The notes under the pieces: model-generated
What the model was told of the DNA's origin: nothing
Database searches by the model: none
What the model saw: the letters and a program-made list of their open reading frames with translations, nothing else
Shown here: one piece after another, positions 47,335 to 64,000 of the stretch
Layout: every line of letters begins with the position of its first letter
How positions within the stretch are numbered: the stretch's first letter is position 1
Source of the DNA: Halostagnicola larsenii XH-48
Lineage (GTDB): Archaea; Halobacteriota; Halobacteria; Halobacteriales; Natrialbaceae
Length of the DNA: 64,000 nt
Assembly: GCF_000517625.1 (NCBI RefSeq)
Contig: NZ_CP007055.1
Location: 2,294,001 to 2,358,000, forward strand
Reading direction: 5' to 3'
Position numbers and translations under genes: made by a program

Positions 47335-50300
47335 TCAGTCGTCGCTCGCCGCGTAGCCCGGCGACTCCGCTTCGACCGGGCTCTCGGGCGTGGCCGGGAG
47401 TTCGGCACGAACGTCGTCGCGGCCGTCCTCGGTGATCGCCTCGTGGTAGGCGTCGGGCATGACCTTCACGAACGACTCGAGGGAGCGCTCCCAGTTGTCG
47501 AGCAGGTCCTGCCCGCGCTCGGAGCCGGTGTAGGCGACGTGGTTCTCGACGAGTCGGCGGAGCATGGTTTCGTCTTCCTCCTCGAGACTGTCGTGGAGGG
47601 TCACCATGCCGGTGTTCGCGCGGTCGTCGAAGTCTCCATCCGGATCGTAGACGTAGGCAACGCCGCCGGACATCCCCGCGGCGAAGTTCGTCCCCGTCTC
47701 GCCCAGCACGGCGACGACGCCACCAGTCATGTACTCACAGCCGTGGTCGCCGACGCCTTCGACGACCGCCTTGGCTGCGGAGTTGCGAACGGCGAATCGC
47801 TCGCCCGCGACGCCGTTGACGTACAGTTCGCCGCCGGTCGCGCCGTAGAGCGCGACGTTGCCGATGGCGACGTTCTCGGCCGGATCGTAGGCCGCGGATT
47901 CGGGCGTCCGGATCGTCAGCTTCCCGCCGGAGAGCCCCTTGCCGACGTAGTCGTTCGCACTGCCGTTCAGGTGCATCGAGACGCCGCTGGCGAGGAACGC
48001 GCCGAAGCTCTGTCCGGCGGTCCCCTCGAGGTCGACCGTCAGCGTGTCCTCGGGCAGTCCCGCCTCGCCGTAGCGGTCGGTGACCCGGTTCGAGAGCATC
48101 GCGCCGACGGCGCGGTCGACGTTCGACACGTCAGTCGCGAGCGTGACTGGCGTCTGCTCTTCGATCGCTTTCTCGCCTGCGTCGATGAGTTTGCGATCGA
48201 GTTGCTCCTCGAGTTCGTGGTCCTGCTCGCGGATCTTCCGGCGGACGTCCCCGCCGGGGCTGGCCAGCAGTCCCGAGAGGTCGAGGGTGCGAGCCTTCGG
48301 ATGCTCGACGTCGGTTCGCTGGGAGAGCACCTCGACGCGGCCGATCATCTCGTCGACCGTCTCGAAGCCGAGTTCGGCCATGATCTCGCGCAGTTCCTGG
48401 GCGATGAACGTCATGTAGTTGATGACGTGTTCGGGTTCGCCGGGGAAGCGCTTCCGGAGGTCCTCGCGCTGGGTGGCGACGCCGACCGGACAGGTGTTCT
48501 TGTGACACTGTCGGGCCATCACGCAGCCGCCGGTGACCAGCGAGGCGGTGCCGAAGATGTACTCCTCGGCGCCGAGCAACGCGGCGACGGCGACGTCGCG
48601 GCCGGTCTTCATCCCGCCGTCTGTCGAGACGCGAATCCGGTCGCGCAGGCCCGTCTCTCGGAGCATCTGGTTGGCTTCGGCGAGGCCGAGCTCCCAGGGG
48701 AGGCCCGCGCTCTTGATCGAGGTTCGGGGCGACGCCCCGGTACCGCCGGAGTGGCCCGAGATGTGGACAACGTCGGCGTTCGCCTTCGCGACGCCGGCGG
48801 CAACCGTGCCGATGCCGGCCTCGCTGACGAGTTTGACGTTGATATCCGCGTCCTCGTTGGCGGCTTTCAGATCGAAGATTAGCTGTTTGAGGTCCTCGAT
48901 GGAGTAGATGTCGTGCAGCGGCGGCGGAGAGATGAGTCCGACGCCGGGCGTCGACTTGCGGACGTGGGCGATCATCTCGTTGACCTTCGCGCCGGGGAGG
49001 TGTCCGCCCTCGCCGGGTTTCGAGCCCTGTGCCATCTTGATCTGGAGTTCGTCCGCACTCGAGAGGTACGTCGAGGTGACGCCGAATCGGCCGGAAGCGA
49101 CCTGCTTGACGTTGCACTCGCGTTCGGTGTCGAACCGTTCCGGCGGTTCACCGCCCTCGCCGGAGTTCGACTTGCCGCCCAGGCGATTCATCGCGATGGA
49201 GTTGTTCTCGTGAGCTTCCGGCGAGAGGCTACCGAGACTCATCGCGGCCGTCGAGAACCGCTCGACGATGTCTTTGATCGGTTCGACGTCTTCGATCGGG
49301 ACGGGGTCGCGATCGGAGTCGAACTCGAGCAAGCCACGGAGCGTCTGGAGTTCCGTCTGCTGGTCGTTGATCAGTCCGGCAAACTCCTGGTAGCGCTCGT
49401 AGTCGTTCGAGCGGACCGACTGCTGGAGCGCGCCGACGGTTTCTGGGTTCCACTGGTGGTGGATGCCGTTCGAGCGGTGTTCGAACTCGCCCTGCCGACT
49501 CAGCTTCGATTCCTCGTCGTCGCCGAACGCCGCCTCGTGGCGTTCGCGAACGTCGTCCTCGATTTCGGCGAGGCCGATCCCTTCTGTGCGATTCTCGGTA
49601 CCCGCGAAGTACTCCTCGACGAGGTCCGAATCGAGTCCGACCGCCTCGAAGATCTGGGCACCCTGGTAGCTCTCGACGGTCGAGATACCCATCTTGGCCA
49701 TGATCTTCAACAGTCCGTCCTCGACCGCGCCGACGTAGGCGTCGATCGCGACTTCGGTATCCGCGCCGTCGGGGCCGGCGGTGATGTCCTCGATGGTCTG
49801 GTAGGCGAGATACGGGTTGACCGCACCCGCGCCGTAGCCGACCAGCGTCGCGAAGTGGTGGACGGTCCGCGGATCCGCGGACTCGACGACGAGTCCGACG
49901 TGATTTCGCAGGCCGTTGCGAACGAGGTGGTGGTGGACCGCACCCGTCGCAAGCAGGCTCGGAATTGCGGCCGAATCGGCGTCGACGCCGCGGTCGGAGA
50001 GGACGACGATGTCAGCGCCGCCTTCGATCGCTTCGACGGTGTCCGCGCGAACGCGCTCGATCGCAGCCTCGAGAGACGAACCCAGTTCGTCGCCGTCGGG
50101 TTCGTAGGTGATGTCGATCGTCGCCGCCGAGAGGCCGTTCGTCTCGCAGTTGCGAACCGACTCGAGTTCCGCGTCGGTCAGAATCGGCGAATCGAGCACG
50201 AGCTGGCGGGCGTGCTCGGGAGACTCCTCGAGGAGGTTCCGCTGGAAGCCCAGGCGGCTCTCGAGGCTCGTCACGAGTTCCTCGCGGATGTAATCGAGCG

Positions 50301-51888
50301 GCGGGTTCGTGACCTGGGCGAAAAGCTGTTTGAAGTACGAAAACAGCGGCCGATTGAACTCGGTGAGCACCGACAGCGGCGTGTCGTCGCCCATCGACCC
50401 GACCGGGTCCTTGCCCTTCTTGGTCATCGGCTCGATCAGGTTCTCGAGTTCGTCGTGGGTGTAGCCGAAGGTCGCCTGGAAATCCCGCAGGTCGGCGACC
50501 TCGTGTTGTGGGGTCCGATCGTTCGTCGAGACGATGTCCTCGAGTGCGACCTGTTCCTGTTCGACCCACTCGCCGTAGCGGTCGTCGACGAGGTCGTCAA
50601 AGACTTCCTCGTCGGGGATGACCCGACCTTCCTCGGGATCGGCGAGGAATAGCTGTCCGGGCTGGAGACGGCCGCGTTCCGCAATGTTTTCCGGGTTCGT
50701 CTCGAGCGCGCCGGCCTCGCTGGCCATGATCAGTCGGTTGTCGGTGGTCACGTCGTACCGGCACGGACGGAGCCCGTTTCGGTCGAGGACCGCGCCGACG
50801 CGTTCGCCGTCGGTCGCCGCGACGAGGGCGGGACCGTCCCAGGGTTCGACGAGCGAGGCGTGGAAGTCGTAGAAGTCCTTGCGGTCCTGGTCCATCGAGT
50901 CGTCGCCGCGCCAGGCTTCGGGCACGAGCATCCGAAGCGCGTGTTCGAGGTCGCGACCGTCCTGCATGAGCAGTTCCAGCGCGTTGTCGACGCTCGCGGT
51001 GTCGGATTGCTCGGGGTCGTCGATGATCGGTTTGACGGCGTCGATATCGGAGATGACGTCGCTCTCGATGTCCGTCTCTCGGGCGCGCATCCAGTTGATG
51101 TTGCCCTGAATGGTGTTGAACTCGCCGTTGTGGATGATGTTCCGGTAGGGATGGGCCAGGTGCCATGCACCGAGCGTGTTCGTCGAGAACCGCTCGTGGA
51201 CCATCGCGAAGTTCGATTCGACGCGCTCGTCGCCGAGATCCGGGTAGTACGATTCGACCTGTTCGCCCTTTAACAGCCCCTTGTAGACGATGGTCTTCGA
51301 ATCGAGCGAGCAGACGTAGAAGCGCTCTTTGTTCGCGATTTCGGCCGCTTCAACCGCATTCTCGAGGGCGCGTCGCGCGACGTAGAGTCGACGATCCAAG
51401 GCTTCGTCGGAGATGTCGTCCTCAGGGGCGACGGCGACCTGCCGGACGTCCGGTTCCGATTCGACGGCCGTCTCGCCGAGTCCGTCGTTGTTCGTCGGAA
51501 CGTCGCGCCACTCGAGGACCTTGAGGTCGTAGTCGGCGAACGTCGATTCGGCGACATCGACCAGGGACGCTCGAGCGTCGTCGTCCTGGGGGAAAAAGAG
51601 CGAGCCGACGGCGTAGGTATCTGGGAGATCTGCATCCAGAACGGCCGCAAAGAACGCATCCGGTCGCTGCAGCATGATTCCGGCCCCGTCGCCGGTGTTT
51701 TCCTCGGCACCGGTGGTTCCGCGATGTTCGAGATTGACGAGTAGTTCGAGTCCATCGGCGACGACGTCGTGGTCGACCGTCCCGTCGAGATCCATTACGA
51801 CGCCGACACCGCAGTTCGACCGCTCGTCCGCAGGGTCCGCGAGGCCCCGTGAACGGTCGGTGGATGATGCTCTGTGTGGCTGTGGCAT
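47335..51888 (-). CDS. gltB: Glutamate synthase large subunit
   Basis: The 1517-residue enzyme has an N-terminal class II glutaminase domain whose nucleophile is Cys26 (DERSNCGVGVVMDLDG) after a 25-residue propeptide, a central domain, the FMN/synthase domain (PPPLHDIYSIEDLKQLIFDL; ISGHSGGTGASPRTSIKSAG), the 3Fe-4S cluster block VTGGCVMARQCHKNTCPVGV (C-X5-C-X4-C), and the C-terminal beta-helix (VYGATGG-like GNVALYGATGGELYVNGVAG). It makes glutamate from glutamine and 2-oxoglutarate. No small subunit gene is adjacent, so ferredoxin or a distant partner may be the electron source. On the coding strand, cttatgg 28 nt before the ATG may be the TATA box. Confidence 0.93.
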   Translation of the reverse strand: MPQPHRASSTDRSRGLADPADERSNCGVGVVMDLDGTVDHDVVADGLELLVNLEHRGTTGAEENTGDGAGIMLQRPDAFFAAVLDADLPDTYAVGSLFFPQDDDARASLVDVAESTFADYDLKVLEWRDVPTNNDGLGETAVESEPDVRQVAVAPEDDISDEALDRRLYVARRALENAVEAAEIANKERFYVCSLDSKTIVYKGLLKGEQVESYYPDLGDERVESNFAMVHERFSTNTLGAWHLAHPYRNIIHNGEFNTIQGNINWMRARETDIESDVISDIDAVKPIIDDPEQSDTASVDNALELLMQDGRDLEHALRMLVPEAWRGDDSMDQDRKDFYDFHASLVEPWDGPALVAATDGERVGAVLDRNGLRPCRYDVTTDNRLIMASEAGALETNPENIAERGRLQPGQLFLADPEEGRVIPDEEVFDDLVDDRYGEWVEQEQVALEDIVSTNDRTPQHEVADLRDFQATFGYTHDELENLIEPMTKKGKDPVGSMGDDTPLSVLTEFNRPLFSYFKQLFAQVTNPPLDYIREELVTSLESRLGFQRNLLEESPEHARQLVLDSPILTDAELESVRNCETNGLSAATIDITYEPDGDELGSSLEAAIERVRADTVEAIEGGADIVVLSDRGVDADSAAIPSLLATGAVHHHLVRNGLRNHVGLVVESADPRTVHHFATLVGYGAGAVNPYLAYQTIEDITAGPDGADTEVAIDAYVGAVEDGLLKIMAKMGISTVESYQGAQIFEAVGLDSDLVEEYFAGTENRTEGIGLAEIEDDVRERHEAAFGDDEESKLSRQGEFEHRSNGIHHQWNPETVGALQQSVRSNDYERYQEFAGLINDQQTELQTLRGLLEFDSDRDPVPIEDVEPIKDIVERFSTAAMSLGSLSPEAHENNSIAMNRLGGKSNSGEGGEPPERFDTERECNVKQVASGRFGVTSTYLSSADELQIKMAQGSKPGEGGHLPGAKVNEMIAHVRKSTPGVGLISPPPLHDIYSIEDLKQLIFDLKAANEDADINVKLVSEAGIGTVAAGVAKANADVVHISGHSGGTGASPRTSIKSAGLPWELGLAEANQMLRETGLRDRIRVSTDGGMKTGRDVAVAALLGAEEYIFGTASLVTGGCVMARQCHKNTCPVGVATQREDLRKRFPGEPEHVINYMTFIAQELREIMAELGFETVDEMIGRVEVLSQRTDVEHPKARTLDLSGLLASPGGDVRRKIREQDHELEEQLDRKLIDAGEKAIEEQTPVTLATDVSNVDRAVGAMLSNRVTDRYGEAGLPEDTLTVDLEGTAGQSFGAFLASGVSMHLNGSANDYVGKGLSGGKLTIRTPESAAYDPAENVAIGNVALYGATGGELYVNGVAGERFAVRNSAAKAVVEGVGDHGCEYMTGGVVAVLGETGTNFAAGMSGGVAYVYDPDGDFDDRANTGMVTLHDSLEEEDETMLRRLVENHVAYTGSERGQDLLDNWERSLESFVKVMPDAYHEAITEDGRDDVRAELPATPESPVEAESPGYAASDD

Positions 51889-52218
51889 ACCACCTCTTGT
51901 GAGCGTCGACCATAAGAGGTTGACCCATAATGACTAAATGTATTCTAGACACATGCAAGGGAATATAAGGTATTATTTTCTAGCGATTCATCACGGCAAC
52001 GAGTGATCATGGCATCGAGTCATCCCAGCAGCGAGGCGACAAGAGTGTCAGAGGCACGTAGTGATCGCTCGCGTAAGCGAACACCACAGTACGTGATTCG
52101 TTTCTACTGATAAGGGTATGCGGGCTAATTGATTAGGCTCGGTAATTTGTTCTTGTTAGTGATTACCGGTAGTTAGTAGGAGTCGAGTCCGAAAAAGTCG
52201 CTGTTTCGCTGTGTGCAG
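51889..52218. other. AT-rich intergenic region upstream of gltB
   Basis: This 330-nt gap between the gltB start and the proS stop has no convincing ORF. Near gltB it holds cctcttatgg (TATA candidate) and gaggtgg just before the ATG. Between 52055 and 52095 a nested fold is possible: cacgta (52055-52060) with tacgtg (52090-52095), gtg/cac next to it, and tcgc/gcga inside. The sequence 51925-51985 is notably AT-rich. A small RNA or a proS terminator could lie here, but nothing decisive was seen. Confidence 0.35.
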
Positions 52219-53706
52219 TCAGTACGATTTCGCGAAGTACGCGATCTGATCGGCGGATTCGCCACAGACCGCACATTCGGCGTCATCGTCGTCTGGCGCT
52301 TCCGGAGCGCCCGTCGTCGCTTCGCCCTCCTCGGCTAACGGTTGCATGACGATTTCCGCCGAAACCTTCTCCTTGATCGCCTCCTCGCAGGCCTGATCGC
52401 CACACCACGGTACTCGGACGTAGCCGCCGTGTTTGCCGATCGTCCCCATGATCTCCTCGGGGCTGTCGGCCTCGCGAACGTTGTCCTCGAGCCTTTCCTC
52501 GGCGGCCGCGTAGAGTTTGTCGTAGATCGTCTCGAGGTTGGATTCGACCGTCTCGACCAGCCCTGAGCGGTCCGCGACGACGTTCTCGTTGTCGGGGCGG
52601 TGAACCAGCGTAACCTCCTCGTCGTCGACTTCGTTCGGGCCGATCTCGAGGCGCAGCGGAACGCCGTTGAGTTCGTGTTCGTTGAACTTGAAGCCGGGAT
52701 TGCGTTCGTCCCGGTCGTCGAGTTCGACGCGGACGCCCGCCGCCTCGAGGTCCGCGGCGATCGCCTCAGAGTACTCGAGCACGTTCTCTTTCGTGTCCTC
52801 CTGCCAGATCGGGACGATGACGACTTGCGTCGGTGCGACCGTCGGCGGAAGCACGAGCCCCTGATCGTCCGAGTGAGTCATGATGAGCGCGCCGAGCGCC
52901 CGCCAGGAGAGACCCCACGACGTGGTGTAAGCCGTCTGTTCGTCCTCGTCCTCGTCGACGAAGGTGATGTCGAACGCCTCCGCGAACGACTGGCCGAGGT
53001 GGTGGCTGGTGCCGCCCTGGACCGACTTGCCGTCGGGCATCAGCGCCTCGACGGTCGTCGTCGTGTCCGCGCCGGGGAACTTGTCGTGTTCGGGTTTTTT
53101 GCCGCGAAGCACGGGAATCGCGAGAACGTCCTCGTAGAGTTCTTCGTACTGTCCGAGTCGGGTCCAGACTTCGTCCCACGCGCCCTCGTCGCTTGCGTGT
53201 GCCGTGTGGCCCTCCTGCCACATGAACTCCTTCGTCCGGAAGAACGGCTTCGTCTCCGTCGCCTCCCACCGAACGACCGAACACCACTGATTGAGCCGCA
53301 GCGGCAGGTCGCGGTGACTGCGCGTCCAGTCGGCCATGAACGGCGCGATGATGGACTCGCTGGTCGGTCGGACCGCCAGGCGCTCCTCGAGTTCGTCGTG
53401 ACCGCCGTGGGTGACCCACGCGACCTCCGGGTCGAACCCTTCGACGATGTCTTTCTCCCGCTCCAAGAACGACTCGGGGATGAACATCGGGAAGTAGACG
53501 TTGTCGACGCCGGTTTCTTTGAACCGGCCGTCGAGTTCGTCCTGTAGGCGTTCCCAGAGGGCGTAGCCCCGCGGTTTCGTGACGATAAAGCCGCCCATCG
53601 GCGCGTAGTCTGCGATTCCCGCCTTCTGGACGACCTCGGCGTACCACTCGCCGGGCTTGTGCGATTTCGACTCGGTGATCCCGAGTTCCTGACTCTCGTC
53701 GCTCAT
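52219..53706 (-). CDS. proS: Prolyl-tRNA synthetase
   Basis: The 495-residue class II synthetase of the archaeal/eukaryotic type has ADYAPMGGFIVTKPRGYALW (motif 1 side), LAVRPTSESIIAPFMADW, VVRWEATETKPFFRTKEFMW (motif 2), EALMPDGKSVQGGTSHHLGQ, the anticodon-binding domain (DVRVELDDRDERNPGFKF-like), and a C-terminal zinc-like domain with WCGDQACEEAI and ECAVCG. The chain ends AYFAKSY, the conserved archaeal terminus whose Tyr reaches the active site. It charges tRNA-Pro. The start is the ATG at 53706. Confidence 0.93.
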   Translation of the reverse strand: MSDESQELGITESKSHKPGEWYAEVVQKAGIADYAPMGGFIVTKPRGYALWERLQDELDGRFKETGVDNVYFPMFIPESFLEREKDIVEGFDPEVAWVTHGGHDELEERLAVRPTSESIIAPFMADWTRSHRDLPLRLNQWCSVVRWEATETKPFFRTKEFMWQEGHTAHASDEGAWDEVWTRLGQYEELYEDVLAIPVLRGKKPEHDKFPGADTTTTVEALMPDGKSVQGGTSHHLGQSFAEAFDITFVDEDEDEQTAYTTSWGLSWRALGALIMTHSDDQGLVLPPTVAPTQVVIVPIWQEDTKENVLEYSEAIAADLEAAGVRVELDDRDERNPGFKFNEHELNGVPLRLEIGPNEVDDEEVTLVHRPDNENVVADRSGLVETVESNLETIYDKLYAAAEERLEDNVREADSPEEIMGTIGKHGGYVRVPWCGDQACEEAIKEKVSAEIVMQPLAEEGEATTGAPEAPDDDDAECAVCGESADQIAYFAKSY

Positions 53707-53811
53707 TGGTTCAACACTCAGCCAGCGCGGGCTTAAACCATGCGAAGGCCGGACGCCGATTCGCGACTCGCCACGGATTGAGCGATACGAGCATCCGGCA
53801 GCGGCCGGTAG

Positions 53812-54204
53812 TCAACTCGCGTTGTGGTCGAGTCGCTCGCCGCGGGTGTACTTCCCGTGGAAGGCGAGCATGTCGATCCCCATCGCCGCCAGCGAAACCC
53901 CGCCGACGGCAGTCAGGAGAAAGAAAAAGAGGCTGCCGCTCCCGGCGAGCCCAAGCGGGAGCGATAGTCCGAGCAGGACGTTTCCAGCGCCGCTCCACCG
54001 ATACCACGCCCAGCGGTCGGTCAGGCCCGTATCGGTCGCTGCAACGATGTCGAACACACCGGCCAGCCCGATCAACGTGACCTGCACGAGAAACGTTGAT
54101 ACCTCGAGACCACCGGTCCCCAGCAAAGCGATGCCACCGCCGCTGACGAGAAGCAAAAACGCGCCGACGACGCCACTGAGTCGACGGTTACGGCGTTCGT
54201 TCAT
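53812..54204 (-). CDS. Four-helix membrane protein, haloarchaeal hypothetical
   Basis: The 130-residue protein has a basic start (MNERRNRRLSG) and four helices: VVGAFLLLVSGGGIALLGTG, TFLVQVTLIGLAGVFDIVAA, GAGNVLLGLSLPLGLAGSGS and FFFLLTAVGGVSLAAMGIDM. It ends in a soluble, charged tail. No family was recognised. It lies upstream of proS on the same strand with a 105-nt gap. Confidence 0.6.
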   Translation of the reverse strand: MNERRNRRLSGVVGAFLLLVSGGGIALLGTGGLEVSTFLVQVTLIGLAGVFDIVAATDTGLTDRWAWYRWSGAGNVLLGLSLPLGLAGSGSLFFFLLTAVGGVSLAAMGIDMLAFHGKYTRGERLDHNAS

Positions 54205-54537
54205 TCGATTTCTGGTGCTGCGTTGGAAAATTGCTTTCGTGCGTGGAGGAACATGGACACGGATTCGGACTATCGATACTTAATCATTTGTTAGATGTGT
54301 GTACGTTCGCCCCGCAAAACATACACTAGAAAATATCTTCCCGGTTCTCGCGCCCTTATGCGACTGTATGACAAACGAAACCGTATGCGAGCTATCGGAG
54401 TCCCAGCGTACGATGATACTGACACGCTCGAGGATTCGATTCGACCGCGCCGTGTCAAGCGCTAGAATGATGGTATTTCGAACTGTCGTTAAAATCATTA
54501 TGTATTATTACTTCCCGCGTTATAGACTTATATTGCC
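54205..54537. other. Intergenic region containing the qor relic and amylase promoter
   Basis: This 333-nt stretch is more AT-rich than its neighbours. It contains a 98-bp block (54336-54433) homologous to the 5' end of the qor gene at 56730, described separately. Its last 60 nt (tgtattatta at 54501-54510, ttatagac at about 54520) probably form the alpha-amylase promoter with a short leader. Confidence 0.6.
54336..54465 (+). pseudogene. Decayed duplicate of the qor promoter and first codons
   Basis: Positions 54336-54433 align without gaps to 56681-56778, with about 83 of 98 bases identical by hand count. The shared block spans the TATA element (cccttatg here, cttttatg at the intact copy), the start codon at the same distance, and 16 codons: MRAIGVPAYDDTDTLE here against MRAIEVPTYGESDTLE in qor. 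The frame then departs and stops at 54463-54465 after 26 codons. It is a truncated relic and not a gene. The promoter looks intact and points into the amylase gene. Confidence 0.8.
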
Positions 54538-56565
54538 ATGGGAAATAACCAAAGTCACAGCAGATTGACGCAGGAATCCAGTATCGACCGGCGAACGGTC
54601 ATGAAAGCGAGCGCAGCGCTCGGAACGCTCGCGCTCTCGGGAGCCACGCTCGGGGCGACGGGCGTGCAGGCGCTGCCCGACGGACCCGAAGCCGACGAGG
54701 ACACCGTCGCCTTGCAGATGTTTCACCGCGAGTGGACCGAAATCGAATCCCGAATCCCCGACGTCGCCGACTCGGGATTCGACGCCATCTGGGTCCAGCA
54801 GCCGGCCGAAATGAAACTGGACTGGGACGACCTCACCTACGACGGGACGATGGGATTCTACGACGAGGTCGGCCCCTACGGGCACCGCGACCCGCATCCG
54901 CCGATCGGCTACCAGCCGATCGACCTGCGAAACTTCGACTCCTCGCTCGGAACGGAAGGCGAACTCGAGTCGCTGATCGAGACCGCTCACGAGCACGATA
55001 TCGAGGTCATCGTCGACACCGTACTCAACCACATGGCCAATCCTGACGGGCCCGACGGGCGGATCGACTGGCCCCAGTTCGAGGCGGACAAACACTTCCA
55101 CAACAACGGAACGCTCGGCGACGACTGTCAGGTAGACGGCGAGGCGGCAAACTACGAGTGCGATCTGCTCGGCCTCCCCTCGCTGGACGTCGAGCATCCC
55201 GAGGTCCAGTCAGCCCACGAGGCGTATATCGAGAAGATCGCCGGGCTGGGTGCCGACGGACTCCGCTACGACGCGGCCGCGCACGTCTGGCCGTGGTACA
55301 TGGAAGAGAACATCAACCCGCTCGCGGACGACCTCGGCCTCTGGCGCGTCGCGGAGGTCTGGGACGAAGGCGACGTCGACGGCCTGCTCGAGTGGGCCGA
55401 CACCGGCATGACAGTCTTCGACTTTCCGTTCTACTCGGCCATCTCGGACGCGTTCGAGAACGGCAGCATGGAGAACCTCTCTCAAAACGCCGCACCCGGC
55501 GTCGTCCACCGAGATCCGAGCGTCGCGGTCACGTTCGTCCAGAACCACGACGCCGTCGGTCCGGGGGTCCAGCCGACCGACGACGCCCAGACCGTCCCCG
55601 AAGGTCGCGCGGTCGAGCTGGCCGAAGCGTTCATCCTGGCGTACGCCGGTATGCCGATGCTCTACCGATCGGGTCCCGAGGAGTACCACGAACTCGAAGA
55701 CGACGAGCTGTCGACACTCGTCGCGGTCTCGAACGAGTTCGCGCAGGGCGAGGTCATCGACCGCGACGTGGGAATCGACCACTACGTCTTCGAACGGGAC
55801 GGAAACCTCCTCGCGGGGATCAACAAAGGCGGCCAGACCGAGTCGGTCACGGTCGAGTCGGGGTGGAGCGACACCGTCCTCGTCGACGCCACCGGCAACG
55901 GCGACGACCTCGAGGTCGGCGCGACCGGCGAGGTCACCGTCGAGATTCCCGCCGAAGGGTACGTCATGTACGTCGACGACGCCGATTCGATTCCGGCAGA
56001 ACGCGGTATCTCGTTCGAATCCACCGAGTACGCGATCGATGGCGGCGAAAGCGTCGACATCGACGTCACAGCCAGCGCCGGCAAGGAGGCTCTCGCCGCG
56101 GACGTGACACTCGCAGTCGACGGCACCGACGCGGCGACCGAGAGCGTCGACATCGATGCCGGATCGTCGGTCTCGGTGAGCTTCGACGTGGAGACGGCCG
56201 ACCTCGCGGACGGCGAGTACGACCTCGAGGTCACCATCCCCGACGATTCCGACACCGCCACGCTCGTCGTTGGAGGCGAAGCCGACGACGGCGAACTAAC
56301 GCTTCGGACGACGGTCGACGTCGGATACGGTCAATCCGTCTACTTCAGCGGCAGCGCCGACGAGCTCACCGACTGGGGCGGCGGGATCGAAGGGACCTGG
56401 TCTGCGGGCAACGTCTGGGAGGTCACCATCGACGACCCCGGCGAGTTCGAGTGGAAGACCCGCCGCGGCCCGTCGGACGCCACCGGCGACGTCTGGGAGC
56501 GCGGCGACAATCACAATCACACGGACCTCGAGGTCGACCATCAGGGCTGGACGGACGACGCCTGA
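54538..56565 (+). CDS. Tat-exported alpha-amylase (GH13) with C-terminal starch-binding-like domain
   Basis: The 675-residue protein has a twin-arginine signal (SIDRRTVMKASAALGTLAL), so it is exported folded. The GH13 barrel shows IVDTVLNHM (region I), ADGLRYDAAAHVW (region II, Asp nucleophile), RVAEVWDEGD (region III, Glu acid) and TFVQNHDAVG (region IV, Asp). After the barrel and a beta domain come a segment of about 95 residues (ISFESTEYAIDGGESVDIDV) that may be Ig-like, and a CBM20-like end (VDVGYGQSVYFSGSADELTD). It degrades starch or related alpha-glucans outside the cell. The closeness of the two qor copies suggests the gene entered this site. Confidence 0.88.
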   Translation: MGNNQSHSRLTQESSIDRRTVMKASAALGTLALSGATLGATGVQALPDGPEADEDTVALQMFHREWTEIESRIPDVADSGFDAIWVQQPAEMKLDWDDLTYDGTMGFYDEVGPYGHRDPHPPIGYQPIDLRNFDSSLGTEGELESLIETAHEHDIEVIVDTVLNHMANPDGPDGRIDWPQFEADKHFHNNGTLGDDCQVDGEAANYECDLLGLPSLDVEHPEVQSAHEAYIEKIAGLGADGLRYDAAAHVWPWYMEENINPLADDLGLWRVAEVWDEGDVDGLLEWADTGMTVFDFPFYSAISDAFENGSMENLSQNAAPGVVHRDPSVAVTFVQNHDAVGPGVQPTDDAQTVPEGRAVELAEAFILAYAGMPMLYRSGPEEYHELEDDELSTLVAVSNEFAQGEVIDRDVGIDHYVFERDGNLLAGINKGGQTESVTVESGWSDTVLVDATGNGDDLEVGATGEVTVEIPAEGYVMYVDDADSIPAERGISFESTEYAIDGGESVDIDVTASAGKEALAADVTLAVDGTDAATESVDIDAGSSVSVSFDVETADLADGEYDLEVTIPDDSDTATLVVGGEADDGELTLRTTVDVGYGQSVYFSGSADELTDWGGGIEGTWSAGNVWEVTIDDPGEFEWKTRRGPSDATGDVWERGDNHNHTDLEVDHQGWTDDA

Positions 56566-56697
56566 TCGACCGTACCGATCGCCTACGGAAGGGGCTGCTG
56601 GTGTCGCTCGAGGACGACCGACCGGCCGGAGGCCGCGCTGGTGACCGCCCGGAAACGATTCTCGGAAACGGCTGGCCGGTTCTTCCCGGTTCTCGCG

Positions 56698-56705
56698 CTT
56701 TTATG
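56698..56705 (+). promoter_or_regulatory. TATA box of leaderless qor
   Basis: cttttatg lies 25-32 nt before the qor ATG. The same spacing and nearly the same bases are retained in the relic at 54353-54360, which supports its importance. Confidence 0.55.
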
Positions 56706-56729
56706 CAACTGTGTGACGAACGGAAACGT

Positions 56730-57701
56730 ATGCGAGCTATCGAAGTGCCAACGTACGGAGAGAGCGACACGCTCGAGGTCGTCGACTCGGAGAAACCCGA
56801 TCCAGAACCGGGCGAGGTTCGAATCGAGATCGAAGCCGCCGGGATCAACTTCGCGGACATCATGCAACGCCGCGGCGCGTATCCCGGCGGTCCCGACGCG
56901 CCGTATACGCCCGGCATGGAAGCCGCGGGGACGGTCGATGAGACTGGCAAAGGTGTCGACCTCGAGGAGGGCGACCGCGTCGTCGCGATGCTCAACACCG
57001 GCGGATACGCCGAGTACGCGACTGCGAACGCCCAGATGCTGTTCCCGATTCCCGACGGGATGAGCTTCGAGGAAGCCGCCGGATTCCCCGTTCAGTTTCT
57101 CACCGCCCACGCCTGTCTGTTCGAGTGGGGCGGCTTAGCGGAGGGTGAATCGGTCCTGATACAGGCCGCGGCGGGCGGCGTCGGCACCGCCGCGGTGCAA
57201 CTCGCCGCCCAGGCCGGTGCCGAGGTCTTCGGAACCGCGAGCACGCAGGAAAAACTCGACCTCGCCGCGGAACTGGGTTGTGACCACCCGATCCAGTACA
57301 CGGAGGTCGACTTCCGGGAGCCGATCGCGGAAGAAACCGACGGCGAGGGCGTCGACCTCGTCCTCGAGAGCGTCGGCGACGACGTGTTCGACCGCAGTCT
57401 CGACGCCCTCGCACACTTCGGTCGGCTCGTCACCTACGGCGTGGCAAGCGGCGTCCCGGCCGAGGCGGAGAACCGACGGCTCCTCTTCGAGAACAAGAGC
57501 GTCTCCGGATTCCACCTCGGACAGGCGTCAGTCCACGACCCGAGCAAGATCATGAAGGCCGTTCCGGAACTCACCGAGGGGCTCACGTCGGGCGATCTCG
57601 AGGTTATCGTCGGCGAGTCGTTCGCACTCGAGGACGCGGCCGAGGCCCACCAGTACATCGAAGACCGGAAGAGTTCGGGAAAAGTCGTGCTGAAACCGTA
57701 A
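56730..57701 (+). CDS. NADPH:quinone oxidoreductase (zinc-independent MDR family)
   Basis: The 323-residue MDR protein has VRIEIEAAGINFADIMQRRG, PYTPGMEAAGTV, the cofactor motif VLIQAAAGGVGTAAVQLAAQ and VDLVLESVGDDVFDRSLDAL, and ends AHQYIEDRKSSGKVVLKP. No zinc-binding Cys residues are present, as in quinone oxidoreductase/zeta-crystallin. It would reduce quinones or enones with NADPH in the cytosol. The ATG at 56730 is supported by the TATA box 25-32 nt upstream and by the matching start in the relic. A longer in-frame ORF to 55158 runs through the amylase gene and is not real. Confidence 0.9.
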   Translation: MRAIEVPTYGESDTLEVVDSEKPDPEPGEVRIEIEAAGINFADIMQRRGAYPGGPDAPYTPGMEAAGTVDETGKGVDLEEGDRVVAMLNTGGYAEYATANAQMLFPIPDGMSFEEAAGFPVQFLTAHACLFEWGGLAEGESVLIQAAAGGVGTAAVQLAAQAGAEVFGTASTQEKLDLAAELGCDHPIQYTEVDFREPIAEETDGEGVDLVLESVGDDVFDRSLDALAHFGRLVTYGVASGVPAEAENRRLLFENKSVSGFHLGQASVHDPSKIMKAVPELTEGLTSGDLEVIVGESFALEDAAEAHQYIEDRKSSGKVVLKP

Positions 57702-57760: not shown

Positions 57761-60700
57761 TCACTGCCCAGTTCGCCCGCCGTCAGCTTCGATCGACGGC
57801 GAGCCCTCGGCCTCCGCGGACGCGTCTCCGTCGGGCCCACACCCGAGCGACCGATGGGGGCAATATCGGCAATGGGGACCCGGCGTCGTCTCCACGAACG
57901 TCGGCTCGTCGATGGACGCGAGCGACTCGCGAACCGCCGACCAGTCGGGCAGTTCCCCCGGCTCGAGGAGTTCGACCCGCGACCCCTCGACGTCGCCGAC
58001 GTAGACGTATCCGACCCCTGCGATCGGTTCGTCGAACGCCTGCTCGCAGGCTCGAGCGTACACCGAGAGCTGGACGGCCTCGCCCGGATCGATCCGTTCG
58101 GCGGTCGCTTTGTAATCGAGCACGACCAGCCCGCCCGCGGGGGTTCGCTGGACCGAATCGACGTAACCGACGACATCCCCAGTGACTCCGGAGACGTCCT
58201 CGAGGACGAACGGCAGTTCGGCCGCGACGGTCTCCCAGTCGGCGACGGGAGCGTCGAACGCCTCGGCTTCGGCCTCGAAATACCGATCGATACACGCCAG
58301 AACCGCCTCGCGGTGCTCGAGGGAATCACGCGCTGCGAGCTGTCTGCTGGCCGCGTCGTGCCACGCACCACGGGTGTCGTAGCCGCGGTGGAACGCCTCC
58401 TCGGCGACGGCGTGGAAGATCGACCCGACGAGACGGCTGTCGGCTCGATCCCGTGTTGACCGCCGCGAGTCCGGCGACAGATTCTCGCGGTCACTCTCGG
58501 CCGGTCGAACGGAATCGCCGGGTGCCTGCACGACGTGATCGAGGTAGTGCTTTCGGGCGCAGGTCTCGTGGGTCGCCAGCGCGGAGTAACTGTGACGCAT
58601 CGTCGCCTCGAGTTCGGAGATGGTCGAGAGCGTCTCGACCGGGAACCGAACCGTCTCCGTCGTTAGCGCACTCGCCTGCCGCGCCATCGGTACGTCGAAG
58701 TCGTCGACGAGTCCGGCACTGCTCGCGGCGTCGGCGGCCGGGAGCAACTGCCCGTTGCGGAGCAATCGACCGAGCTGGTGGACCGTCTCGATCGCCTCCC
58801 GCGTCTCGAGCGGTTCGATCCGCCGGTCGTCGTAGTCCTGGTAATACGTGATCGTTCCCGGGTTCGTGCGTGCTGTCGACGAAAGTGCGTCCGTCCAGTC
58901 GACGACGGTCTTCGGATACTGCTCGCGAACGGTCTCGAAGCTCTCGGAGACCGTCGACCAGAGGTCCATCCGTTTGCCCGCCACGGACCACTCGATGTCG
59001 TCGGCGAGACAGGACTCGGCGGTCGAGACGGACAACTGCGTCTCGTCGCCGTCGTAGTCGTACTCCGAGCCGAACACGAGGAGGTGGTTCTCGGCTCGAG
59101 TCAGTGCGACGTGGAGCACGCGCCACTCCTCGCCGAGGGGGTCGGCCGCGAGGTTCGCGAGCAGCGGCGAGTCGACATCGTCGTCGAGCGTCGCCTCGAG
59201 GAGTCGGTACCGGTCGCGGCGAGCGTAATCGCCGTCGACGCACCATTCCTCGTCCGAGAGGAATGGTGCGAGGACGGTATCGAACTGCAGCCCCTTCGCC
59301 TGGTGGACCGTCATCACGTCGATACGGTCGCTCGAGCGAGCGCCACGGTCGCCCGAGGACTCGCTCGCGCGGAGGGTTCGTTCGAGCGCGTCGACGAACC
59401 GCGGCGTGAGCGCCGTCAGTACCGAATCGCCGTCGTATCCCTCGACGAATCGATCGATTCGCTCGAGTTCGGCGCGTTCCTCGGCGGTCAGGAACCACTC
59501 GAGATTCGTTCGTTCCCGGAAGCGCCGGACGAACTCCGAGAGCGGGTAGACGTCCCGGATCGACTCGAGCGCTTCGAGGTGATCTCGGGCCCGCGAGAGC
59601 CTGTCGAGGGCCTCGACCGACGGCTGATCGTCGCCAGATGAGGGGCGCTTCGTACCGCTCTCGAGGTCGGAAGCGGACTCGGGGAAACAGTCGATATCGA
59701 ACAGCGCCTCGTACAACGAGTCGCCTCGCCGGGCGAGCGCCGCGAGGTCCGATTCCGGAATGCGATACCGATAGAGCAACACCCGCCGGAGGTGGGCATC
59801 GGCGTCCGGGTCGACAAGTACGCGAAGATACGAGAGGACGGTCTGGACGCCCGGCGAGATTTTGCCCCTCGGCGAGCCGGAGACGGCAAAGGGGATCCGG
59901 CGACTCTCGAGCTCGTCGGCGACCGCCTGCGCCTGCCGGTTCGTTCGAACGATGATCGCGATATCCTCGAGCGAGCGCCGCGGGACGTTCTCGACCCGGC
60001 CGTTGAGCAGTCGAGCGGTCGCTCTGGCCACCTGCTCGGGCGTCGACCAGGGCAGTTCGTCGCTCTCGACTTTCAGCAGTCGGTGGGGCGGATCCGCCTC
60101 GTCGTACTCGCCGGGGGTTCGGTCGTTCTCCCGCAGCGTCTTCGACTCCTGGGGCCCGTACGAACAGTGGTTCGTCAGATCGAGGATCTCCTGTCGCGAC
60201 CGGAAGTTCAACTCGAGTTCGATCGACTCGTGTTCGTCGTCGGTGTCGGCGAGTCGGTCGAGCCCCTCGCGGTCGGTTCCTCGCCAGCCGTAGATCGCCT
60301 GATCCTTGTCGCCGATCGCGAGTAGATCCGGCCGGGTTTCGCCCTCGGTGAGCGCCCGAATGAGTCGAAACTGCGTCTCGTCGGTGTCCTGAAACTCGTC
60401 GCAGTAGACGTGGTCCCAGCGGTTCGCGATTTCGTCGGCGACGGAACCGGCTCCGGTGAGCAACCCCGTCGCCGTCCGAACGAGTTCGTCGAAGTCGACG
60501 GCGTCGTCGCGCGCTAACGTCTCCCGATAATCCGCGTAGACGTCGGTATAGTGGCGGGCGAGCCGCAGGAACTCGACGTAGTGTTTCAACCGACCGAACG
60601 GCGTTTGCTCGAGTCGGCCCGTCGACTCGCCCCAGATCTCGTTTCCGAACAGCGCTCTCGGCAGGTGTTTCGTCGTCGGCTCCTCGAGCGAGAGTTCCTC

Positions 60701-61513
60701 GAGTGTATTGGTCACGCACGTCTGTAGCGCCCGAAGGTATCGATCGATCGTGCCGACGACCGGATCCGACCGAAACTCGCTCGGCGCTTCCGCGATCTTC
60801 TCGCGACAGAAGCCGACCAGCTTGCCGTACTCGATCAGCGACTCGCGTGCGGCCTCGAGGTGATCGGGGTCGTTGAAGTACCGAAACGCCTCCTTGTCGA
60901 AGGAGAGTTCCTCGGTCGCGGTCTCCTCGAGCCAGAGGACGAACTCGGTACACAACTCGAGTGTCCGGACCGACGGCAGTCGCGACTCGAGGGTTTCGGG
61001 GCCGATGTCCTCCTGGCTCATCGTCGCGATGAACCCGTCGATGGCGTCTGCGAGGTCCGCCGGTGAGCTGTCGCCGCGAGCGGGGGCCGCCGCGAAGTCG
61101 TACTCGGTTTCGGCGAGCAGTCGGCCGACGATCCGCCGTCGCTTGCGTTCGGTCACGACCTCGAACTCCGGCGAGAGTCCGAGGTAGTAGGCGTACTCGC
61201 GAACGAGCTGATAACAGAACGAGTGGTAGGTGTAGACGTCGATGGCCGCGGCGGCCTCCGGATCGAGCCGTTCTGTTACCGCCTCGCGAATGCTCGAGGC
61301 GGCCTCGTTCGCGAAGGTGAGTACCAGCACGTCCTCGGGGTCGACCGCCCCGCTGTCGATCGCCCGCTCGATCCGCATGAGCATCGTCGTCGTCTTCCCG
61401 GTCCCGGCACCCGCGTCGACGGCCGTCGACACGCTCTCGCTCTCGATGACCCGCCGCTGGTTTCCCTTCGGCTCGAGCGGACCGGTTCCCGCCGGTTCCG
61501 ACCGGTCACCCAT
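57761..61513 (-). CDS. UvrD/AddA-type helicase-nuclease
   Basis: The 1250-residue protein has all superfamily 1A helicase motifs: Walker A TAVDAGAGTGKTTTMLMRIE (about 31-45), Walker B DHVYCDEFQDTDETQF, motif III LAIGDKDQAIYGWRG, motif V VMTVHQAKGLQFDTV and motif VI HVALTRAENHLLVFG. The C-terminal nuclease has GSIFHAVAEEAFH (His1034), VGYVDSVQ (Asp1119) and LVVLDYKAT (Asp1133, Lys1135), an intact PD-(D/E)xK site. Cys985 and Cys1215, Cys1218, Cys1225 form a four-Cys cluster staple as in AddB/Cas4. The start (ATG 61513) overlaps the upstream gene by 8 nt. It likely unwinds and degrades DNA ends. Confidence 0.9.
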   Translation of the reverse strand: MGDRSEPAGTGPLEPKGNQRRVIESESVSTAVDAGAGTGKTTTMLMRIERAIDSGAVDPEDVLVLTFANEAASSIREAVTERLDPEAAAAIDVYTYHSFCYQLVREYAYYLGLSPEFEVVTERKRRRIVGRLLAETEYDFAAAPARGDSSPADLADAIDGFIATMSQEDIGPETLESRLPSVRTLELCTEFVLWLEETATEELSFDKEAFRYFNDPDHLEAARESLIEYGKLVGFCREKIAEAPSEFRSDPVVGTIDRYLRALQTCVTNTLEELSLEEPTTKHLPRALFGNEIWGESTGRLEQTPFGRLKHYVEFLRLARHYTDVYADYRETLARDDAVDFDELVRTATGLLTGAGSVADEIANRWDHVYCDEFQDTDETQFRLIRALTEGETRPDLLAIGDKDQAIYGWRGTDREGLDRLADTDDEHESIELELNFRSRQEILDLTNHCSYGPQESKTLRENDRTPGEYDEADPPHRLLKVESDELPWSTPEQVARATARLLNGRVENVPRRSLEDIAIIVRTNRQAQAVADELESRRIPFAVSGSPRGKISPGVQTVLSYLRVLVDPDADAHLRRVLLYRYRIPESDLAALARRGDSLYEALFDIDCFPESASDLESGTKRPSSGDDQPSVEALDRLSRARDHLEALESIRDVYPLSEFVRRFRERTNLEWFLTAEERAELERIDRFVEGYDGDSVLTALTPRFVDALERTLRASESSGDRGARSSDRIDVMTVHQAKGLQFDTVLAPFLSDEEWCVDGDYARRDRYRLLEATLDDDVDSPLLANLAADPLGEEWRVLHVALTRAENHLLVFGSEYDYDGDETQLSVSTAESCLADDIEWSVAGKRMDLWSTVSESFETVREQYPKTVVDWTDALSSTARTNPGTITYYQDYDDRRIEPLETREAIETVHQLGRLLRNGQLLPAADAASSAGLVDDFDVPMARQASALTTETVRFPVETLSTISELEATMRHSYSALATHETCARKHYLDHVVQAPGDSVRPAESDRENLSPDSRRSTRDRADSRLVGSIFHAVAEEAFHRGYDTRGAWHDAASRQLAARDSLEHREAVLACIDRYFEAEAEAFDAPVADWETVAAELPFVLEDVSGVTGDVVGYVDSVQRTPAGGLVVLDYKATAERIDPGEAVQLSVYARACEQAFDEPIAGVGYVYVGDVEGSRVELLEPGELPDWSAVRESLASIDEPTFVETTPGPHCRYCPHRSLGCGPDGDASAEAEGSPSIEADGGRTGQ

Positions 61514-62531
61514 CGAAACGCACCTCCCGTGAGAGGTAGTCCGGACAGCAGACCGCATAGCCACAGTCCGGACACGACTCGTCTGCGATCCGATCCCATC
61601 CTCCCGGAGGATTGAACCGCTTGGAGACGAGGTCGTCGACGATAGTTGCGAGTCGGTCTTCGACCGTTCCGTTCCGGTGTTCGTGTGTCATGCCAAACGT
61701 GTGGTGATCGATGAAGACGTCGGTCAGGTCGGTCCCTTCGACGCTCGTTTCGACGGTTTCGCTCACCCAGTTGACCGAGTTCCGGGATCGATCCGCCAGC
61801 GGGATCACGACGTATCGGCAGGTCCGATCCTCGAGCCCGAGCCGATCGCACAACCCCCGGAGGCCGTCGAGAACGACGGCCGTCTCCAGTAACGTGGCGA
61901 CCGTGCCCGGTTCGAAGGTCGACTCGTCCGGATCGAAGTGGTCCGTAAACAGCGCCTGAACGTCGCCTTCCCAGTCGGACCGATAGCGGAGCAGTCCGAG
62001 CGAGTCGACCGTGGGAACGAACCGAACGCCGACGAGCGAGGAGCCGTCGCCGACGACGTAATCGACCGACGACTCGAGGGCGACGGATCGACTCGTCGAC
62101 GGCTCGTCCGCTGGAATCGATATCGTCGACGACAGCGCGAGCGCCGGCCCGACCAGTTCGCCAGCGGTGCTCGTCGATCGAAGGTCGTCGATGCCCGCGG
62201 CGTGAGCAGCCCCGACCGCCTCGACGTACGCCCGTGCGGTTGCCTCGAGCACCCGGCGTTCGAACTCGCGTTGTGCTCGTGAGTGAAACCGCTCGTCGTG
62301 CTCGTGCCAGCGCGTCGACAATCGCTCGAGGATTGCTTCTTCGAGGGGTTTCTGATCGGTCTCGCCAGTTCGAAGGCCGTCACAGAGCGCTCGTCGAAGC
62401 AGATCGACGCGGTCGGCCGACGGCGAATCCGGTTCGTCCCGTCTGAGTTCCTGTACGTGAGCGAACTCGTAGCGTCGCGGACAGCGGAGATACGTCTCGA
62501 GCGCGTCGACCGAGAGCGTTCGATCACTCAC
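61506..62531 (-). CDS. Iron-sulfur-staple protein related to Cas4/AddB nuclease, active site degenerate
   Basis: The 341-residue protein starts LSVDALETYLRCPRRYEFAH (Cys17) and ends ESCPDCGYAVCCPDYLSREV (Cys320, Cys323, Cys329). The pattern C ... C-x2-C-x5-C is the iron-sulfur staple of AddB, Cas4 and Dna2. The nuclease core reads SSVDYVVGDGSSLVGVRFVP; an Asp is kept in VDY but the following D/E-x-K is replaced by V-R-F, so it is probably inactive as a nuclease. It overlaps its neighbours by 8 nt on each side, implying translational coupling and a shared complex. It may correspond to the C-terminal part of AddB as a separate chain. Confidence 0.75.
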   Translation of the reverse strand: MSDRTLSVDALETYLRCPRRYEFAHVQELRRDEPDSPSADRVDLLRRALCDGLRTGETDQKPLEEAILERLSTRWHEHDERFHSRAQREFERRVLEATARAYVEAVGAAHAAGIDDLRSTSTAGELVGPALALSSTISIPADEPSTSRSVALESSVDYVVGDGSSLVGVRFVPTVDSLGLLRYRSDWEGDVQALFTDHFDPDESTFEPGTVATLLETAVVLDGLRGLCDRLGLEDRTCRYVVIPLADRSRNSVNWVSETVETSVEGTDLTDVFIDHHTFGMTHEHRNGTVEDRLATIVDDLVSKRFNPPGGWDRIADESCPDCGYAVCCPDYLSREVRFDG

Positions 62532-64000
62532 GCCGACTCACCTCCCCCGCGGCGAACTCGAACTGAGAGACGACCGCGTTGGCGAGTTCCTCGTCGATGT
62601 CGCCCTCCTCGAGGAGAACGGCGATTTCTTCGAACAGGGCCTCGGTTTCGGCGAGATCCGCATCGCCGCCGGTACTGGCCTCGCGGAGGATGCGATCGAG
62701 TTCGCCACGAGGTTGCTCGAGGAGCGCCTCGAGCGCGCTGGACTCGCCGTAAATTTCCGCTTTTCGACCCGTTAGGTCGACGTCCTCGAGCGAACAGTCG
62801 GGAGCCTGCTCGAGGAGTTTCAGATAACGAGATTCCTCGTGGGTTCGGCGGAGTCCGCCCGAGCCGCGCTCGTACGAACAGCAGTAGAGGCGTTCGGTCG
62901 CCGCGCGGGTACCGATCGCCAGCCGTCTCCGGGCGCGCTGGGCGTGGTAGGTCTCGAAGGGGTCCGAAACGGATTCGCCGTCGGATATCGGCTCGAAGGT
63001 TCGCTCGAGAGCCGCCGGACTGGGATCCGTGACGGCGGGGTAGTTGGGCATGTCGCGGAGCCAGGCCGTCGGAAACAGCTGCGTGAGCGAGGGGTCGCCG
63101 GGATAGTTCGCTTCGATCAGATCGAGCACGAAGACGACGGCGTGTGGATCGTACGCCAACTCGTCGATCGAACAGACCGTCACTCCGCCGGTGGGGGCCT
63201 GCGCGTCGACCGTGTGGACGTGTGGCGCGTCGTACCTGATAGTCCGCTCGAGCATTCGGCGCAGACCCTCCCAATCGGGCCCGACGAGGTCGGTCTCCTC
63301 GACGAAGCGGGCGATCTCGAGCACTCGTCGAACGCCCGCGAACTGCTCTCTGGCGTCGACCCACTCCTCGTCGCGTGAAATTCGGCCTTTCAGATCCGTT
63401 CGAGTGAGCCAGCGTTCGACCGACTGGGCGACGCTCGGGCCATCACATTCCTCGAGCAGTGTGGTGGAAAAATCCTCGACTCGAACCGCAAGGCGGTTGT
63501 AGGCGACCGTTTGGGGATCGTCCGCTCGAGCACCAGTACGGGAGCGGGTCGATTCTGGAGCGAGGAGATCGTCGGAAAGCGTCTCTACGTCGCGGGCGCA
63601 CTGGAGGGTAACGAACGCGTAGAGTTCGTTGACCGCCGGATCCTCCGCGAGCGAGGGAACGCCGATCGTGGCGGTCGGGATGGACGCGTCGCGGAGTCGC
63701 GTTCGGGTTTCTGGCACCCGTTCGACTCGAGGGACGGCGACCGCGATGTCGTCGTAGCGAATGTCGTCGCGCCGATCGCGAAGGGACTGGATCTCGGTCA
63801 CGACCGTATCGACCTGCTCGCGACGCGTACGGGCCCGAATGCGTCGAGCAGTGCCGGGTTGGGCGTCGGTCGCAGCCGACTCCGTCATCCGTCCCGTCGC
63901 GAGGAACTCCGTTATCTGTCGGTGCGGGGGGTGCGAGTCAGAAGTGCCCCGAGTATCAGACAGCGAGTCGCGGTCAGGATCGACATCGGCTCCCTGCTCG
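62524..64000 (-). CDS. AddB/UvrD-like helicase C-terminal domains, truncated by window edge
   Basis: The visible 491 codons end with the stop at 62524. Reading from an ATG at 63888 gives 454 residues, but the frame is open without a stop to the window edge, so the gene probably continues. The part seen matches the second half of an AddB or UvrD-like helicase: IRARTRREQVDTVVTEIQSL (motif IV side), a degenerate motif V region (VCSIDELAYDPHAVVFVLDL) and a motif VI-like RRRLAIGTRAATERLYCCSY. No Walker A is visible. It would be the AddB-like partner of the helicase-nuclease downstream. It overlaps the next gene by 8 nt. Confidence 0.7.
   Translation of the reverse strand, partial: EQGADVDPDRDSLSDTRGTSDSHPPHRQITEFLATGRMTESAATDAQPGTARRIRARTRREQVDTVVTEIQSLRDRRDDIRYDDIAVAVPRVERVPETRTRLRDASIPTATIGVPSLAEDPAVNELYAFVTLQCARDVETLSDDLLAPESTRSRTGARADDPQTVAYNRLAVRVEDFSTTLLEECDGPSVAQSVERWLTRTDLKGRISRDEEWVDAREQFAGVRRVLEIARFVEETDLVGPDWEGLRRMLERTIRYDAPHVHTVDAQAPTGGVTVCSIDELAYDPHAVVFVLDLIEANYPGDPSLTQLFPTAWLRDMPNYPAVTDPSPAALERTFEPISDGESVSDPFETYHAQRARRRLAIGTRAATERLYCCSYERGSGGLRRTHEESRYLKLLEQAPDCSLEDVDLTGRKAEIYGESSALEALLEQPRGELDRILREASTGGDADLAETEALFEEIAVLLEEGDIDEELANAVVSQFEFAAGEVSRRE

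What the first reader, a model, noticed from the sequence alone, without database searches (positions are those of the whole stretch)
57761..64000. Three-gene AddAB-like helicase-nuclease operon with AddB split in two
Three minus-strand genes overlap by exactly 8 nt at both junctions. The last encodes a full UvrD/AddA helicase with an intact PD-(D/E)xK nuclease and a four-Cys cluster (Cys985, 1215, 1218, 1225). The middle gene is a stand-alone protein with the AddB/Cas4 staple (Cys17, 320, 323, 329). The first has the degenerate motif V/VI of AddB. In bacteria the AddB functions sit on one chain. Established knowledge: AddAB/RecBCD process DNA ends for recombination; most archaea use HerA-NurA with Mre11-Rad50. 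Inference: haloarchaea of this group may use a three-subunit AddAB-like machine, or the operon may be a defence system against foreign DNA.
Basis: partly seen in the sequence, partly recalled or inferred. Interest (0 to 1): 0.8.

Follow-up and report, generated by a model that had tools for sequence, protein, structure and literature searches.

The report
Split AddAB-like helicase-nuclease in haloarchaea
Three tightly linked genes in this salt-loving archaeon encode what looks like a DNA-end-unwinding and cutting machine (AddAB type) whose second subunit is made as two separate proteins, one of which has lost its cutting site; close relatives on mobile DNA keep that site and often sit beside Argonaute and other defence genes.

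Summary
Three minus-strand genes overlap by exactly 8 nt at both junctions; the first runs 866 bp past the window end. All 80 related loci from named genomes keep the order, and the middle gene is never found without the first (24 of 24 genomes). Predicted folds of genes 1 and 2 tile one B. subtilis AddB chain: residues 2-769 and 785-1138. Gene 1 lacks a Walker A motif in 81 of 81 sequences. Gene 3 is an intact UvrD-type motor with an intact Fe-S nuclease, but forms its own clade outside AddA, so this is AddAB-like and not canonical AddAB.

In the window's lineage the middle nuclease has lost its catalytic residues (single loss) while its four Cys stay invariant and it remains under purifying selection. 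A sister, often plasmid-borne lineage keeps the catalytic site and often lies beside Argonaute-PLD, BREX, restriction or Mre11/Rad50-like genes; the chromosomal window form does not.

The HerA-NurA replacement idea fails: all 59 haloarchaea sampled have NurA.

Best reading: a three-chain DNA-end-processing helicase-nuclease; the Natrialbaceae form works with one nuclease, RecBCD-like. No activity has been shown.

The parts
62524..64000 (-). Gene 1 (3' part; whole gene reaches 64866, 780 aa): AddB/UvrD-type helicase fold without Walker A
   Evidence: no significant Pfam family; fold and profile matches to AddB and UvrD; no Walker A in 81 sequences
61506..62531 (-). Gene 2 (341 aa): stand-alone AddB/Cas4-type Fe-S nuclease domain, catalytic residues lost
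   Evidence: Pfam PDDEXK_1 8.5e-8; fold match to AddB 785-1138 and AdnA 791-1039; motif loss
57761..61513 (-). Gene 3 (1250 aa): UvrD-type SF1A helicase fused to an intact PD-(D/E)xK nuclease with four Cys
62524..62531 (-). 8-nt overlap of genes 1 and 2 (GTGAGTGA)
   Evidence: 4 or 8 nt in 80 of 80 related loci
61506..61513 (-). 8-nt overlap of genes 2 and 3 (ATGGGTGA)
   Evidence: 1-11 nt overlap in 78 of 79 loci
61391..61411 (-). Gene 3 Walker A, GAGTGKT (residues 35-41)
58058..58414 (-). Gene 3 nuclease active-site span (H1034 to Y1152)
   Evidence: conserved in nearly all filled rows
57839..57871 (-). Gene 3 Fe-S Cys 1215, 1218, 1225 (fourth Cys 985 at 58559-58561)
61545..61574 (-). Gene 2 Fe-S Cys 320, 323, 329 (fourth Cys 17 at 62481-62483)
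62016..62063 (-). Gene 2 degenerate nuclease motif: D157 kept, D/K pair lost (GVRFV in place of .DYK.)

Best explanation
The operon encodes one three-chain DNA-end-processing helicase-nuclease of the AddAB/AdnAB/RecBCD kind. Gene 3 would be the only motor, a 3'-to-5' UvrD-type translocase with its own Fe-S nuclease. Gene 1 would be an ATPase-dead helicase-fold partner and gene 2 an Fe-S nuclease-fold partner; together they take the place of the single AddB (or AdnA) chain at the DNA fork. In the window's lineage, mainly chromosomal in Natrialbaceae, gene 2 has lost its catalytic residues but keeps its Fe-S Cys and fold, so it probably only guides or separates the 5' strand and all cutting is done by gene 3, a one-nuclease arrangement as in RecBCD. 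In the sister lineage, often on plasmids, gene 2 keeps a full active site, so two nucleases could cut both strands as in AddAB. The most likely job of the window's form is processing broken or stalled DNA ends in repair, in addition to HerA-NurA. SHOWN here: gene content, order, coupling, co-occurrence, motif states, fold matches, phylogeny, contexts. INFERRED: that the proteins form one complex, the strand assignments, the Fe-S clusters themselves, and the repair role.
For: Order 1-2-3 in 26 of 26 and 80 of 80 loci with mostly 4- or 8-nt overlaps. Middle gene found only in the 24 genomes that carry gene 1. Gene 1 model (pLDDT 82.5, homologue about 84% identical) aligns 601-625 residues to AddB 2-769, Z about 20.5; gene 2 model (pLDDT 86) aligns to AddB 785-1138, Z about 14, and AdnA 791-1039, Z 15. 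Gene 1 profile matches AddB in PDB, E 7e-6, and methanogen single-chain AddB, E 7e-8. Gene 3 motor and nuclease motifs conserved. Nuclease loss in gene 2: lost in all 52 window-type sequences, intact HEDDKQY in 29 of 29 sister sequences, one change on the tree. Gene 2 dN/dS 0.18-0.38 in the lineage that lost the site. Window lineage: 40 of 51 loci keep the same divergent CBS-domain neighbour, several keep gltB or folC nearby, none has Argonaute; 89 of 101 Natrialbaceae carry gene 1. A plasmid relative sits beside Mre11/Rad50-like genes.
Against: No complex was modelled and no activity is known. Gene 1 also matches UvrD well (Z 24.4 on fewer residues). Gene 3 does not group with AddA, AdnB or UvrD-Cas4, so AddAB-like behaviour rests on analogy. 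Twelve of 101 Natrialbaceae lack the set, so it is dispensable. This genome also has HerA-NurA and a second, two-gene AddAB-like pair, so its own job may be narrower than general end resection.
Confidence: 0.68

Rival explanations
1. The operon is primarily an antiviral or anti-plasmid defence system in this lineage too, degrading foreign linear DNA or clearing Argonaute-cut DNA.
For: Sister lineage: 8 of 29 loci lie directly after an Argonaute and a PLD gene, others with Mrr, methylase, STAND-ATPase genes; 16 plasmid records, incl. one in a BREX/restriction island. Haloarchaeal Argonaute-PLD (APAP) defends against plasmids and virus (PMC11442185).
Against: 0 of 51 window-type loci have Argonaute nearby; 40 of 51 share one CBS-domain neighbour; present in most Natrialbaceae; gene 2 nuclease lost once and stably.
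Confidence: 0.25
2. It replaces HerA-NurA as the main end-resection machine.
For: AddAB-like architecture; a review states H. volcanii lacks HerA-NurA (PMC7776575).
Against: NurA family above cut-off in 59 of 59 haloarchaea, H. volcanii control included, and NurA plus HerA near each other in this genome; the three-gene set is missing from most haloarchaea.
Confidence: 0.03
3. The three proteins do not form one machine; gene 3 works alone as a UvrD-Cas4-type helicase-nuclease and genes 1-2 have a separate job.
For: Stand-alone UvrD-Cas4 fusions are known (PMC5704561); gene 3 scores better with them than with methanogen AddA.
Against: Strict order and coupling in all loci, no middle gene without gene 1; genes 1 and 2 tile AddB. 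A gene 3-like gene without genes 1-2 was seen once, next to a transposase.
Confidence: 0.1

Closest known systems
Bacterial AddAB (B. subtilis 3U44/4CEJ) and canonical two-gene AddAB on haloarchaeal plasmids
   Same: Helicase-nuclease pair in one operon; genes 1 and 2 cover the AddB fold end to end; four-Cys staple in the AddB nuclease
   Different: AddB is two chains; gene 1 has no Walker A; gene 2 nuclease is degenerate in this lineage; gene 3 has its own four-Cys cluster and lies outside the AddA clade
AdnAB (mycobacteria)
   Same: Gene 2 fold matches the AdnA Fe-S nuclease best (Z 15); gene 3 resembles AdnB by sequence
   Different: AdnA and AdnB each carry motor and nuclease on one chain
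RecBCD
   Same: In the window's lineage only the main-motor chain keeps a nuclease; gene 1 is RecC-like in having a dead helicase fold
   Different: No RecD; RecC's dead nuclease domain is on the RecC chain and has no Cys staple (from memory)
UvrD-Cas4 fusion helicase-nucleases (PMC5704561)
   Same: Architecture of gene 3: SF1A motor plus Fe-S Cas4-like nuclease
   Different: Those are described as single fused proteins without a gene 1/gene 2 partner, and the two sampled fall outside the gene 3 clade in the tree
APAP: haloarchaeal Argonaute plus PLD protein (PMC11442185)
   Same: Sister three-gene sets directly follow such pairs; the paper notes a helicase gene beside some
   Different: The window's locus has no Argonaute or PLD gene

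Membership tests
AddAB | AddB helicase-like and nuclease domains on one chain | tested here: not met
   Two genes in all 80 loci; single chain in methanogens and H. salinarum
AddAB | AddB fold | tested here: met
   AddB 2-769 by gene 1, 785-1138 by gene 2
AddAB | Motor chain groups with AddA | tested here: not met
   Gene 3 its own clade (support 100), AddA clade 99 (quick tree, few references)
AddAB | Active AddB nuclease with four Cys | tested here: not met
   Cys kept, catalytic residues lost in window lineage; both kept in sister lineage
AddAB | ATP-dependent end degradation and Chi response | not testable with these tools
   Needs biochemistry
AdnAB | Two chains, each with UvrD motor and nuclease | tested here: not met
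   Genes 1 and 2 are separate; gene 1 has no Walker A
RecBCD | RecD 5'-3' motor subunit in the set | tested here: not met
   None of the three proteins matches a RecD model
UvrD-Cas4 fusions | SF1A motor fused to Fe-S Cas4-like nuclease, in that clade | tested here: inconclusive
   Architecture met; two references group elsewhere
APAP (Argonaute-PLD) defence | ago and agaP genes in the operon | tested here: not met
   0 of 51 window-type loci; 8 of 29 sister loci
HerA-NurA | HerA ATPase and NurA nuclease | tested here: not met
   The three proteins match other families; HerA-NurA present elsewhere in the genome

The most novel reading that the evidence does not exclude
A separate, haloarchaeal third line of AddAB/RecBCD-type machines with a three-chain layout, which serves Argonaute-based defence on mobile DNA as its unwinding and degrading partner, and of which Natrialbaceae domesticated a chromosomal, single-nuclease version that evolved a RecC-like dead subunit independently of RecBCD.
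Probability: 0.35. Interest if true: 0.8.

Novelty: new variant of a known kind. Interest (0 to 1): 0.62.

Why it matters
AddAB, AdnAB and RecBCD are taught as bacterial. A three-chain relative carried by most of one haloarchaeal family makes the open question of how haloarchaea process DNA ends directly testable, and offers a natural comparison between a two-nuclease (mobile) and a one-nuclease (chromosomal) form of the same machine. The Argonaute-linked form suggests a dedicated helicase for Argonautes that cannot open duplex DNA by themselves.

Tried and rejected
Pfam, NCBIfam and PADLOC give nothing significant for gene 1; GajB hits of gene 3 are generic UvrD matches. HerA-NurA replacement rejected. 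Middle gene alone: not found. Gene 1 in other classes of the phylum: only weak, partial matches to single-chain AddB or UvrD-Cas4 proteins of about 1000-1090 aa. The gene 2 profile against PDB sequences gave only spurious hits; only the fold comparison was informative. A Rad50 zinc-hook search of the own genome found nothing but also misses H. volcanii, so it says nothing. Literature searches found no description of this three-gene set, but the library is open-access only.

Full report
OBSERVATION. With the ATG start of gene 3 at 61513 and the GTG start of gene 2 at 62531, both junctions overlap by exactly 8 nt. Gene 1 runs off the window; the genome gives its full length, 780 aa, up to position 64866.

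FAMILY AND CONSERVATION. A first search found gene 1 in 24 of 59 haloarchaeal genomes; a profile found it in 141 of 391, including 89 of 101 of the window's own family (my count). The middle gene occurs in exactly the same 24 of 59 genomes. In 26 loci and in 80 named loci the order is always 1-2-3 (gene 3 is cut off by a contig end in some and broken in L056 and L129), with overlaps of 4 or 8 nt at almost every junction. The named loci are all haloarchaea; the nearest are Halostagnicola.

WHAT THE PROTEINS ARE. Gene 1 has no significant Pfam match, but its profile finds UvrD1 and AddB in the PDB. The model of a close homologue (the window's own copy runs off the window; pLDDT 82.5) aligns 601-625 residues to AddB 2-769 with Z about 20.5. 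UvrD gives a higher Z (24.4) over fewer residues and does not cover the last 70. None of 81 sequences has a Walker A. The gene 2 model (window protein, pLDDT 86) aligns to AddB 785-1138 (Z 14.3), AdnA 791-1039 (Z 15.0) and an Argonaute-associated Cas4 protein, ACE1 (Z 13.8). Genes 1 and 2 thus tile one AddB chain with the boundary at the domain border. Gene 3 is an intact SF1A motor plus PD-(D/E)xK nuclease with a four-Cys cluster. In a motor-chain tree it forms its own clade (100) beside AddA (99), AdnA/AdnB, UvrD-Cas4 and PcrA/Rep (quick method, few references).

TWO LINEAGES. In the window's lineage gene 2 has lost the catalytic residues; in the sister lineage all seven RecB-family residues are present in 29 of 29. 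The change maps to one branch, and gene 2 stays under purifying selection (dN/dS 0.18-0.38, against 0.08-0.13 in three sister pairs). So the dead subunit is kept for something other than cutting. A divergent member outside Natrialbaceae (L045) also has the dead form.

CONTEXT. Window-type loci share a divergent CBS-domain gene (40 of 51), and several have gltB or folC nearby; none has Argonaute. Sister loci are variable: 8 of 29 follow an Argonaute and a PLD-domain gene directly (the Argonaute scores 1081 bits to a PADLOC pAgo model), with spacings such as 54 and 5 bp in L055; others lie with Mrr, adenine methylase or STAND-type ATPase genes. In the 59-genome sample all four genomes with this Argonaute have the three genes right after it. 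Sixteen plasmid records carry gene 1 relatives; none is of the close window type (all about 31-33% identical to the window's gene in the rows listed). One lies by BREX and restriction genes, one by Mre11/Rad50-like genes. The Argonaute-PLD pair is the published APAP system, whose authors note a helicase gene near some operons (PMC11442185).

ALTERNATIVES. HerA-NurA is not replaced: NurA is in 59 of 59 genomes and near HerA in this one, against a review's statement about H. volcanii (PMC7776575). This genome also holds a second, two-gene AddAB-like pair, and other haloarchaea carry a canonical two-gene AddAB on plasmids, so single-chain AddB exists in the same class.

CONCLUSION. An AddAB-like three-chain machine is the best reading; membership in AddAB proper is not met on three tested features. 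Function in repair for the window's form is inference.

Noticed in passing
L195:2201-9318 (own genome C1 about 201200-208318): The window's genome carries a second AddAB-like pair: a 1164-aa single-chain AddB-like gene and a 1207-aa UvrD-nuclease, whose C-terminus also has a four-Cys pattern.
   Followed up: partly
L181:2931-9615 (Halobacterium salinarum R1 plasmid PHS3); L192: Canonical two-gene AddAB on haloarchaeal plasmids, also with an 8-nt overlap; no Cys cluster seen in their AddA.
   Followed up: partly
L178:6198-14088: NurA-family and HerA-family genes lie within 8 kb of each other; NurA family is in all 59 haloarchaea searched, contrary to a review's statement for H. volcanii.
   Followed up: yes
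L193:1-12462 (archaeon DL31 plasmid): Metallophosphoesterase, SMC, NurA, HerA-like genes followed by a transposase and a lone gene 3 relative without genes 1-2.
   Followed up: partly
L052:12378-13505, L055:1109-3796: A small exonuclease-like protein shares its N-terminal, OB-like domain with the haloarchaeal Argonaute and sits beside three-gene sets that lack the Argonaute.
   Followed up: no
L191:1411-6868 (Halorhabdus tiamatea plasmid): A short, very divergent nuclease plus UvrD pair (860 + 960 aa), perhaps another AddAB offshoot.
   Followed up: no
L056:9466-11055; L129:12936-16384: Gene 3 is interrupted in two sister-lineage loci, consistent with decay of an accessory system.
   Followed up: no
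window 47335-57701: Neighbours on the other side are glutamate synthase, a prolyl-tRNA-synthetase-like gene, an alpha-amylase-like gene and a quinone-oxidoreductase-like gene (read from sequence).
   Followed up: no
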